A DNA stretch of 64,000 nt from Pochonia chlamydosporia 170 (lineage: Eukaryota > Ascomycota > Sordariomycetes > Hypocreales > Clavicipitaceae): assembly GCF_001653235.2 (NCBI RefSeq), contig NW_019154052.1, forward strand, positions 158,767 through 222,766, in the 5' to 3' direction. The notes under the pieces were generated by a model. The model was given only the letters and a program-made list of their open reading frames with translations. It was not told where the DNA came from and ran no database searches. A program made the position numbers and the translations under genes. Below, one piece after another: positions 57,932 to 62,313 of this stretch. Each line of letters starts with the position of its first letter. The first letter of the stretch is position 1.

Positions 57932-58052
57932 TTAGGGTTAGGGTTAGGGTTAGGGTTAGGGTTAGGGTTAGGGTTAGGGTTAGGGTTAGGGTTAGGGTTA
58001 GGGTTAGGGTTAGGGTTAGGGTTAGGGTTAGGGTTAGGGTTAGGGTTAGGGG
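57932..58052 (+). repeat. Interstitial telomere array (TTAGGG)n
   Basis: About twenty perfect TTAGGG units with the G-rich strand on top, the orientation of a right-hand chromosome end. It marks a former chromosome terminus to which the retroelement was added. The last units overlap the first bases of the 454-bp repeat. Confidence 0.95.
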
Positions 58053-58493
58053 ACAGTTAAATGGACGCGTTTTATTGCAGAATTATGAGCGACTTCACGT
58101 TGGTGCCTACTTGGATCTCCAATCCAGGAAAAATCTCAAGTTTCGCCGTGCTTGGCTCATCAGGGCATGTGTCTATGTGTCGAGAGACAGCGCGTTCTTA
58201 TGTTCCTCGAGGGCGGCGAGGAAGACTGCTGCCTAAAGCCTTGTGTTACACAAGCTGGCAGCTGACTTCCCAGCCCCCTAACTTATCACTTTCGTGATTG
58301 GAGGAGACGCGTGCGGCCACCGTTTTGGTCACAGTGTGACGTGTCCTTGCAGACAGCGCGTACTGGACCAATCCTAACCCGAGTCACTATGGCGGTATTT
58401 CGCGCATAGTGCAAGTACAGTGCGACACACTGTACCCTTGGTCATTTACATGACACTGGTTAGGGTTAGTGGTTAGGGTGAGGGTTAGGGGTT
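58040..58493 (-). repeat. 3' pseudo-LTR, 454 bp (copy 1)
   Basis: Apparently identical over its length to 61860-62313 (offset 3820) and, inverted, to 62661-63114. It begins and ends with telomeric sequence: TTAGGGTTAGGGG at the left and a variant GTTAGTGGTTAGGGTGAGGG stretch at the right. It contains a hammerhead ribozyme and an unlikely 78-codon frame. Confidence 0.93.
58090..58182 (-). ncRNA. Type I hammerhead ribozyme (copy 1)
   Basis: Same 93-nt sequence as the plus-strand copy at 62972-63064, where the structure is described in full. Predicted self-cleavage between 58108 and 58107 on the minus strand. Confidence 0.85.
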
Positions 58494-58959
58494 TGAACCC
58501 AACGAGGCTTATCCAAAAAGCACCCTCCGCTATTGCCGACTGGAATACGCAAAATCTGATAGAGGCCAAGAACTGATGAAAGGAGGAACCCAAATCATTG
58601 AGCGCGGGAGTCCCGAGGCGACGTCTTATAGTGTACTCAACGGTTGCCAGACCAACTGGTGGGTCAAGCCCAACCAGTCAGACGAGGTGGTTCCCGAAGT
58701 CAGGGGGCGGTGCTTCGTAGCGACCCGAATGCTACTACCCCGGAGGGGCACCTTCCAACAACAAAAACACAACCACAGAGGCGCACGTGATCCAGGGAGA
58801 CGCGTCTGTTTCGTGTCGTCCCACCGTTCAAATCCCCATTCATCCAATCATCAGCCTACTCCTGACTTTGAAAGTCCCACAACCTGGGCAGCGCGAGGCA
58901 TTAACACCCAAGACCAGGACAACAAACAAACGGTGGCCCCAACAGACCCAACCCGAAAG
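58494..58959 (-). other. 3' UTR of the Penelope-like element
   Basis: 466 bases between the RT stop and the 3' pseudo-LTR. No open frame on the RT strand that I trust; plus-strand frames at 58576-58986 lack homology. Likely part of the RNA recognised by the RT. Confidence 0.6.
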
Positions 58960-61845: not shown

Positions 61846-61859
61846 GGTAAAACGAAGAA

Positions 61860-62313
61860 TTAGGGTTAGGGGACAGTTAAATGGACGCGTTTTATTGCAG
61901 AATTATGAGCGACTTCACGTTGGTGCCTACTTGGATCTCCAATCCAGGAAAAATCTCAAGTTTCGCCGTGCTTGGCTCATCAGGGCATGTGTCTATGTGT
62001 CGAGAGACAGCGCGTTCTTATGTTCCTCGAGGGCGGCGAGGAAGACTGCTGCCTAAAGCCTTGTGTTACACAAGCTGGCAGCTGACTTCCCAGCCCCCTA
62101 ACTTATCACTTTCGTGATTGGAGGAGACGCGTGCGGCCACCGTTTTGGTCACAGTGTGACGTGTCCTTGCAGACAGCGCGTACTGGACCAATCCTAACCC
62201 GAGTCACTATGGCGGTATTTCGCGCATAGTGCAAGTACAGTGCGACACACTGTACCCTTGGTCATTTACATGACACTGGTTAGGGTTAGTGGTTAGGGTG
62301 AGGGTTAGGGGTT
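61860..62313 (-). repeat. 5' pseudo-LTR, 454 bp (copy 2)
   Basis: Direct repeat of 58040-58493, no differences seen by eye. It ends 14 bases upstream of the RT ATG, so it should supply the promoter and nearly all of the 5' leader. Confidence 0.93.
61910..62002 (-). ncRNA. Type I hammerhead ribozyme (copy 2)
   Basis: Second minus-strand copy of the ribozyme (offset 3820 from copy 1). Cleavage would fall between 61928 and 61927, leaving an 82-nt leader before the RT ATG. With copy 1 it would release a unit-length RNA of 3820 nt. Confidence 0.85.

What the first reader, a model, noticed from the sequence alone, without database searches (positions are those of the whole stretch)
58040..62313. 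Telomere-attached Penelope-like element lacking endonuclease in an ascomycete-type genome
Seen: RT with Penelope-like palm and thumb (Asp638, YIDD, SSAHP...RRGYP), no GIY-YIG domain, flanked by 454-bp direct repeats, 3' end joined to about twenty TTAGGG units and pointing inward. Known: endonuclease-deficient Penelope-like elements (Athena in bdelloid rotifers, Coprina in basidiomycetes) sit at telomeres and are thought to extend chromosome ends using the free 3'-OH. Inference: this fungus carries a live or recently live element of that kind. I recall few or no detailed descriptions from Pezizomycotina.
Basis: partly seen in the sequence, partly recalled or inferred. Interest (0 to 1): 0.93.

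Follow-up and report, generated by a model that had tools for sequence, protein, structure and literature searches.

The report
Fungal chromosome-end retrotransposon resembling telomerase
Several chromosome ends of this fungus carry near-identical copies of a mobile element whose copying enzyme resembles telomerase and which appears to add itself directly onto telomeres, a known kind of element in an unusually complete form.

Summary
Window 58040-62313 (minus strand) is a complete 4,274-bp Penelope-like element (PLE): 454-bp repeat, intact 961-aa reverse-transcriptase ORF, identical 454-bp repeat, no GIY-YIG domain. Its 3' end joins (TTAGGG)20 and points inward; its 5' end is capped by telomere repeats. 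The RT falls in the endonuclease-deficient PLE clade (100/99), inside a fungal group; the nearest named relative is an Aspergillus nomiae protein. In the host assembly all 4 sizeable copies found adjoin telomere arrays, 5' end outward. Two complete copies are identical over 4,274 bp, while neighbouring repeats are RIP-decayed. Most likely the element is copied directly onto the telomeric 3' overhang, and telomerase re-caps its outer end. It is a well-preserved new member of a known kind (Athena/Coprina/Terminon); a putative telomeric PLE from Zymoseptoria was already in print.

The parts
57459..57929 (+). Dispersed, RIP-decayed AT-rich repeat, cut off at 57929 where telomere repeats begin (old chromosome end)
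   Evidence: a query of 56830-57931 has 44 matches in the own genome, itself included; TpA/ApT 1.58, GC 0.25; 10 of 10 printed copies continue past this point
57932..58051 (+). (TTAGGG)20 array at the inner (3') end of copy 1; overlaps the element's own telomere-like 3' end by 12 nt
   Evidence: 100% matches over 20 units
58040..58493 (-). 3' pLTR of copy 1 (454 bp)
   Evidence: identical to 61860-62313
58040..58052 (-). telomere-template-like 3' end CCCCTAACCCTAA, at the 3' junction
   Evidence: read directly
58104..58167 (-). hammerhead motif in the 3' pLTR; predicted cleavage after element nt 4206
   Evidence: descriptor hit; 0 hits in 150 Markov control sequences of 64 kb
58458..58493 (-). 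degenerate telomere repeats at the 5' end of the 3' pLTR
   Evidence: read directly
58494..58959 (-). 3' untranslated region
   Evidence: between ORF stop and 3' pLTR
58960..61845 (-). ORF, 961 aa: helical N-terminal part, PLE reverse transcriptase (core about 485-880), 81-aa C-terminal tail without GIY-YIG
61860..62313 (-). 5' pLTR of copy 1
61860..61872 (-). internal copy of CCCCTAACCCTAA, just upstream of the ORF
61924..61987 (-). hammerhead motif in the 5' pLTR; predicted cleavage after element nt 386, 82 nt before the ATG
62278..62313 (-). degenerate telomere seed at the 5' terminus of the element
62367..62541 (.). 175-bp AT-rich filler between two telomere arrays; only match in the own genome is itself
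62542..62660 (-). (CCCTAA)n array: telomere cap of copy 2, facing the cap of copy 1
62661..63114 (+). 5' pLTR of the inverted copy 2, with hammerhead motif at 62987-63050
63129..64000 (+). ORF of copy 2, first 290 codons, cut by the contig end

Best explanation
It is an endonuclease-deficient, telomere-targeted Penelope-like retrotransposon. Proposed cycle: (1) transcription runs from the telomere side inward, giving RNA that ends in the pLTR's CCCCUAACCCUAA or in read-through (CCCUAA)n (inferred); (2) that C-rich end pairs with the telomere's TTAGGG 3' overhang, as a telomerase template would (inferred from the junctions); (3) the element's TERT-like RT extends the overhang, so no endonuclease is needed and the element lies 3' inward, 5' outward (orientation shown, priming inferred); (4) the cDNA ends in the element's own degenerate telomere seed, which host telomerase extends into a new cap (seed and cap shown; a TERT gene is present; extension inferred). 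The hammerhead in each pLTR probably trims or unit-cuts the RNA (motif shown, activity not).
Against: No activity, transcript or read data. Identical copies at different ends could also spread by recombination starting in the telomere arrays. The hammerhead descriptor was written after the motif had been seen; the motif was the minimum-energy fold in 4 of 10 nested stretches folded, and Rfam gave no hammerhead match at E<=1. The C6 copy has no hammerhead hit as assembled and is cut at its 5' side, with about 180-205 bp of other sequence up to the contig start; its differences are mostly indels (22 events, 2 substitutions; apart from the alignment edge all in the last 210 nt), so they may be sequence error. 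A 61-bp pLTR remnant lies 27 kb inside C8, so not every trace is at a telomere today. That copy 2 lies 5' outward holds only if the head-to-head junction is read as two chromosome ends. The fold margin over group II and DGR RTs (15.5-15.7) is small, and some TERT chains score lower (13.4-15.3).
Confidence: 0.82

Rival explanations
1. The element is now a passive passenger: the identical copies spread between chromosome ends by recombination or break-induced replication that starts in the TTAGGG arrays, with no recent retrotransposition.
For: Copies are perfectly identical and separated from their proximal flanks by homologous telomere arrays, the arrangement that telomere-anchored recombination would also give.
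Against: ORF fully intact with the RT motifs. The inner arrays differ in length and sequence between C17, C11 and C6, and the three outer caps seen (C17 twice, C11) differ from each other. In C6 the 3' junction is CTGTC-TAACCC instead of CTGTCCCCTAACCC, as separate priming events would give, though that part of C6 looks error-prone.
Confidence: 0.2
2. The inverted second copy is an assembly artefact: two PLE-capped chromosome ends, or two passes over one end, were joined head-to-head.
For: C13:33924-34323 shows another head-to-head telomere pair with a run of N inside it. C17 breaks off inside copy 2. C2 and C10 share their first 2,000 bases (2000 of 2000), so the assembly may hold redundant ends.
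Against: The join in C17 has no run of N; the two caps differ in length and in variant repeats, and a 175-bp filler lies between them, so it is not a simple fold-back of one end.
Confidence: 0.6
3. It is a LINE, a group II-type RT or a TERT paralogue rather than a PLE.
For: Sub-threshold matches to RVT_1 (1.6e-5), Drt3a (3.5e-8) and group II RTs (6.2e-7); the fold also resembles group II and DGR RTs. No LINE or group II rows were in the trees.
Against: Close sequence relatives form one clade with other endonuclease-deficient PLEs, and GIY-YIG PLEs are the sister side. Repeats with hammerheads are a PLE trait. The genome's own TERT is a different gene and only a 27.6-bit match to the PLE core profile.
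Confidence: 0.02
4. It inserts into nicks or breaks inside telomere arrays with an endonuclease supplied in trans, and not onto the chromosome terminus.
For: Telomere repeats are found on both sides of the element.
Against: The orientation is uniform in 4 of 4 copies; the outer array of copy 1 is short, as a new terminal cap would be, though contig ends may cut arrays. A 2013 paper states that fungal genomes hold only endonuclease-deficient PLEs (PMC3846280 passages).
Confidence: 0.08

Closest known systems
Coprina-type endonuclease-deficient PLEs of basidiomycete fungi (name and traits recalled; primary paper Gladyshev and Arkhipova 2007 not held)
   Same: PLE reverse transcriptase without GIY-YIG, telomeric, 3' end inward with reverse-complement telomere repeats; the tree joins the window's group with a Microbotryum protein inside a fungal group (99/96).
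   Different: A separate branch of its own (94/88). It has complete pLTRs, whereas PMC3846280 says that protist and fungal endonuclease-deficient PLEs do not share that organisation (passage). No sequence named Coprina was compared.
Athena / Terminon elements of bdelloid rotifers
   Same: Endonuclease-deficient PLE RT; hammerhead followed by a short reverse-complement telomere stretch at the 3' end; re-capped with telomere repeats (PMC6431247 and PMC3846280 passages).
   Different: Compact (4.27 kb), one ORF where two are described as typical, visible 5' ends complete where most Terminon copies are truncated, an additional telomere-like seed at the 5' end, and a host that has TERT, which PMC5405514 reports absent in the bdelloid.
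Putative telomeric PLE family of Mycosphaerella graminicola (Zymoseptoria tritici), PMC4522978
   Same: Pezizomycotina; 3.4-3.5 kb; one to three TTAGGG copies at the 3' end, which points away from the telomere (passages).
   Different: Called putative there; the passages seen give no RT tree, pLTR or hammerhead. Its sequence was not compared here.
Canonical Penelope/Poseidon PLEs (e.g. Poseidon of Anolis, PMC11167929 passages)
   Same: pLTR-ORF-pLTR layout, a hammerhead in the pLTR, TERT-like RT.
   Different: These carry a GIY-YIG endonuclease, which the window element lacks.
MoTeR of Magnaporthe oryzae (named in PMC10088271; nature recalled)
   Same: Telomere-targeted retroelement of a Pezizomycotina fungus.
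   Different: MoTeR is, as I recall, a non-LTR element; the window RT is a PLE. Not compared by sequence.

Membership tests
Endonuclease-deficient telomere-associated PLE | RT groups with endonuclease-deficient PLEs | tested here: met
   100/99 for that side of the tree (68 of 81 rows; 13 long or outgroup rows dropped first); quick tree with all 81 rows agrees at 86 SH-aLRT. No published Athena or Coprina row was included. One dropped row of that side (P0178) has a weak GIY-YIG match (4.2e-5).
Endonuclease-deficient telomere-associated PLE | No GIY-YIG endonuclease | tested here: met
Endonuclease-deficient telomere-associated PLE | Copies at telomeres, 3' end inward | tested here: met
   4 of 4 sizeable copies found (C17 twice, C11, C6). 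Two small old remnants: C13 N-terminal fragment about 6 kb from a telomere array, C8 61 bp about 27 kb from the contig end
Endonuclease-deficient telomere-associated PLE | Reverse-complement telomere repeats at the 3' end | tested here: met
   CCCCTAACCCTAA inside the pLTR, continuing into the array
Endonuclease-deficient telomere-associated PLE | 5' end capped by telomere repeats | tested here: met
   3 of 3 visible 5' ends; the 5' end of the C6 copy is not present
Endonuclease-deficient telomere-associated PLE | Priming from the chromosomal 3'-OH | not testable with these tools
   needs biochemistry
PLE in general | pLTRs bearing a hammerhead ribozyme | tested here: met
   (sequence and fold only; self-cleavage not tested; Rfam gave no hit)
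Coprina (named family) | Clusters with published Coprina sequences | not tested
   no such sequence in hand; only a Microbotryum relative
Canonical Penelope PLE | GIY-YIG endonuclease at the C-terminus | tested here: not met
   81-aa C-terminal tail against 225-244 aa in the six GIY-YIG PLEs printed
TERT | Telomerase RNA-binding domain | tested here: inconclusive
   Most whole-model alignments to TERT begin at residues 366-374, those to group II and DGR RTs mostly near 543, but the 350-560 stretch folded alone listed no TERT

The most novel reading that the evidence does not exclude
The two hammerheads release a 3,820-nt unit RNA that is closed into a circle, and new copies are made by reading about 1.12 rounds of that circle from the telomere overhang. 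The start (CCCCUAACCCUAA) and the stop (the degenerate telomere seed) would both be telomere mimics, so one pass gives pLTR-ORF-pLTR with a ready-made new telomere. It fits the pLTR borders, which lie exactly at the two telomere-like stretches, and the near-unit contig lengths of 52 of 74 relatives. A linear read-through RNA explains the same data.
Probability: 0.12. Interest if true: 0.85.

Novelty: new member of a known kind. Interest (0 to 1): 0.55.

Why it matters
Retrotransposons like the terminal, endonuclease-deficient PLEs have been proposed as possible progenitors of TERT (PMC7658794 passage). This copy is intact, present as identical copies at several contig ends, compact, and sits in a host that has TERT exons, so element-driven and telomerase-driven end extension could be compared in one organism. 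It adds a clear pLTR-plus-hammerhead layout to a fungal endonuclease-deficient PLE and suggests that the element brings its own telomere seed. The group looks widespread: 693 protein matches at E<=0.001 (120 listed), and all 8 listed rows that name an organism belong to genera I know as Pezizomycotina.

Tried and rejected
Rfam scan for a hammerhead: only a spurious mir-337 match (29.7 bits, gathering 80) in each of the three pLTRs; the motif was then seen by eye in the sequence, and folding and a descriptor followed. In one search the hammerhead was the minimum-energy fold in 4 of 10 nested stretches; in the other 6 flanking sequence paired otherwise. Viral contigs: one single-protein scan, no relatives. 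Genome contigs was not scanned; metagenome contigs were not available, so relatives' repeats and ribozymes were not checked. A telomerase-RNA-binding-like domain ahead of the RT was suggested by whole-model alignments but got no support when the stretch was folded alone, so it is not claimed. The 175-bp filler matched only itself in the own genome; local alignment gave raised scores to RIP-type AT-rich subtelomere (51 and 49, against a maximum of 36 for 20 shuffles aligned to the window's subtelomere on one strand), not enough to say what it is. Papers not held: Gladyshev and Arkhipova 2007, Cervera and de la Pena 2014, Arkhipova 2017, Craig 2021; what is said of them is recalled or taken from other papers' passages. 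In particular I recall, unverified, that Cervera and de la Pena reported hammerheads in fungal PLEs. Paper searches.

Full report
What is there. The window is the last 64,000 bases of contig C17 (222,766 bp) of an unnamed 44.2-Mb assembly in 49 contigs. Reading outward (+ strand): a dispersed AT-rich repeat is cut off at 57929, then (TTAGGG)20 (57932-58051), then a minus-strand element (58040-62313), then a telomere cap (62314-62366), a 175-bp AT-rich filler, a (CCCTAA)n array and a second, inverted copy that runs off the contig end. The element is pLTR (454 bp) - 14 nt - ORF of 961 codons and stop - 466-nt 3' UTR - identical pLTR; the repeats are 454/454 identical and 3,820 bp apart.

The old chromosome end. 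A query of 56830-57931 has 44 matches in the genome, itself included, most of them the dispersed repeat; in 10 of 10 copies printed the repeat continues past the point where C17 has telomere repeats. So this end looks like a broken repeat that was healed by telomere addition before the element arrived outside it (inference).

The protein. No Pfam family reaches its cut-off; RVT_1 is the best (1.6e-5). NCBIfam gives sub-threshold matches to Drt3a (3.5e-8) and group II RTs (6.2e-7), as a distant RT would. Catalytic residues are invariant in an alignment of 13 sequences and nearly all in one of 55. A profile of C-termini of GIY-YIG-bearing PLEs finds nothing in six frames of 57501-64000 (best E 2.5), while it finds the domain also in PLEs from which it was not built, such as P0189, P0195 and P0192. 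The seven other fungal relatives printed there share an 80-87-aa C-terminal tail with the window protein.

Phylogeny. A quick tree of 81 RT cores, with the host TERT fragment as outgroup, placed 49 rows of the endonuclease-deficient side together (86) and the Pezizomycotina-type set on one branch (92); it warned of long branches, TERT among them. I dropped 13 rows (TERT and 12 long or distant ones) and built a careful tree of 68: endonuclease-deficient side 100/99, fungal group with Rhizopus and Microbotryum 99/96, Pezizomycotina-type set 94/88, window with A. nomiae and two metagenome rows 100/99. Of the 18 rows of that set, 7 carry organism names, one is the window, and 10 are unnamed proteins that I assigned by similarity. 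One row without detected GIY-YIG (P0187) lies on the GIY-YIG side, and one row of the other side, P0178 (in the first tree only), has a weak GIY-YIG match (4.2e-5). Published Athena and Coprina sequences, and LINE or group II rows, were not included.

Copies in the genome. Protein and pLTR searches (candidate lists, hence lower bounds) give: C17 copy 1, complete; C17 copy 2, 1,340 bp to the contig end, identical; C11, complete, 4,274/4,274 identical; C6, a 3' piece of about 1.3 kb; a 36%-identity N-terminal fragment on C13; and a 61-bp pLTR remnant on C8. All four sizeable copies adjoin telomere arrays with the 5' end outward; for copy 2 this takes the head-to-head junction as two chromosome ends. 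The C6 copy starts about 180-205 bp from the contig start, after other sequence. Arrays of five or more perfect units lie in 11 stretches of the genome that account for all 127 pattern matches. Seven are at or near contig ends: four without the element (C4, C7, C10, C30) and three with it (C6, C11, C17), so 3 of 7. The others are internal (C2, C7, C13, C14). The C6 copy is identical to the window copy up to the last 210 nt of the pLTR, where nearly all of its 22 indel events and 2 substitutions fall (the rest at the alignment edge); this suggests sequence error near the array rather than decay.

Age. Six stretches of the neighbouring repeat family bear a RIP signature (TpA/ApT 1.46-1.68, GC 0.21-0.27). 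The element does not show it clearly: ORF 0.64, 3' UTR 0.71, pLTR 1.00, against 0.76 for the rest of the window. Identical 4.3-kb duplicates mean spread since RIP last acted on them, or an asexual lineage (inference).

Telomere mimicry at both ends. The pLTR ends in CTGTCCCCTAACCCTAA; the same 13 nt CCCCTAACCCTAA stand inside the element upstream of the ORF, so they are element sequence and not just flank. The pLTR begins with AACCCCTAACCCTCACCCTAACCACTAACCCTAACC, also present at the inner border. On the strand that would be extended outward, this end reads as a degenerate TTAGGG seed. All three visible 5' ends are complete and run straight into caps of differing make-up.

Hammerhead. Nucleotides 327-390 of the pLTR hold stem I UGCC/GGCA, core CUGAUGA, stem II GCC/GGC, GAA, stem III ACUUG/CAAGU and cleavage site GUA; the minimum-energy fold is this structure in 4 of 10 nested stretches. 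A descriptor, written after the motif was seen, hits three times in the window, exactly in the three pLTRs, 0 times in 150 Markov-generated sequences of 64 kb and in 0 of 20,000 randomised pLTRs; it also hits both pLTRs of C11 but not the C6 copy. Cleavage would fall after nt 386 and 4206, 82 nt before the ATG and 68 nt before the 3' end. Self-cleavage is untested; in Poseidon of Anolis ribozyme cleavage was not needed for insertion in vitro (PMC11167929, passages).

Mechanism. Shown: anatomy, orientation, junctions, no detected endonuclease, intact RT, TERT exons in the host. Inferred: pairing of the RNA's C-rich end with the G overhang, extension from the chromosomal 3'-OH, re-capping by telomerase from the seed. 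This is the mechanism proposed for Terminons (PMC6431247 passages) and other endonuclease-deficient PLEs (PMC3846280 passages). Recombination between telomere arrays could have moved some copies and is not excluded.

Novelty. Known kind. A telomeric PLE was reported as putative in M. graminicola (PMC4522978 passages), and PLEs were reported at telomere-missing chromosome ends in Agaricus (PMC7473861 passages). A 2013 paper states that fungal and protist endonuclease-deficient PLEs do not share the repeat-bearing organisation of animal PLEs (PMC3846280 passages); this element has it. I found no paper describing a Pezizomycotina PLE with pLTRs and hammerheads in the searches, going by listings and the passages read, but the key primary papers are not held.

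Relatives. Of 74 relatives other than the window's own, 52 have a longest contig of 3.6-4.0 kb, close to the 3,820-bp unit. Either the repeats and telomere arrays break assemblies, or units exist as tandem arrays or circles; the contigs could not be fetched.

Noticed in passing
62314-62660: Two telomere caps face each other across a 175-bp AT-rich filler whose only match in the genome is itself: a chromosome-end fusion or an assembly join.
   Followed up: partly
L047 (C13:31000-38000), about C13:33924-34323: Another head-to-head telomere pair with a run of N inside it; about 6 kb away lies a diverged (36%) N-terminal PLE fragment (C13:27247-27858).
   Followed up: partly
L052 (C14), C14:15280-15369, and L048 (C2), C2:188526-188609: Interstitial arrays of about 14-15 perfect telomere units; the one on C14 directly adjoins sequence that I read as a hAT-like transposase (by eye and recall, not searched).
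   Followed up: no
L056 and L059 (starts of C10 and C2): The first 2,000 bases of C2 and C10 are identical (2000 of 2000): assembly redundancy or a recent duplication.
   Followed up: no
8572-15055: An NPHP3_N/NACHT ORF is followed 40 nt later on the same strand by a 1,549-codon ankyrin-repeat ORF, possibly one NLR-like gene with an intron.
   Followed up: partly
43497-45032: A 511-aa ORF that contains 138-bp tandem repeats (44007-44932), apparently rich in cysteine, with no Pfam match at E<=1e-5.
   Followed up: partly
62862-62948 and the matching stretch of each pLTR: A hairpin-forming stretch of the pLTR gives a spurious sub-threshold mir-337 match in Rfam; it may be a structured RNA element.
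   Followed up: no
L055, C8:1220456-1220517: A 61-bp remnant of the pLTR 3' end (89%) next to degenerate telomere-like sequence, 27 kb from the contig end: an old, mostly lost copy.
   Followed up: partly
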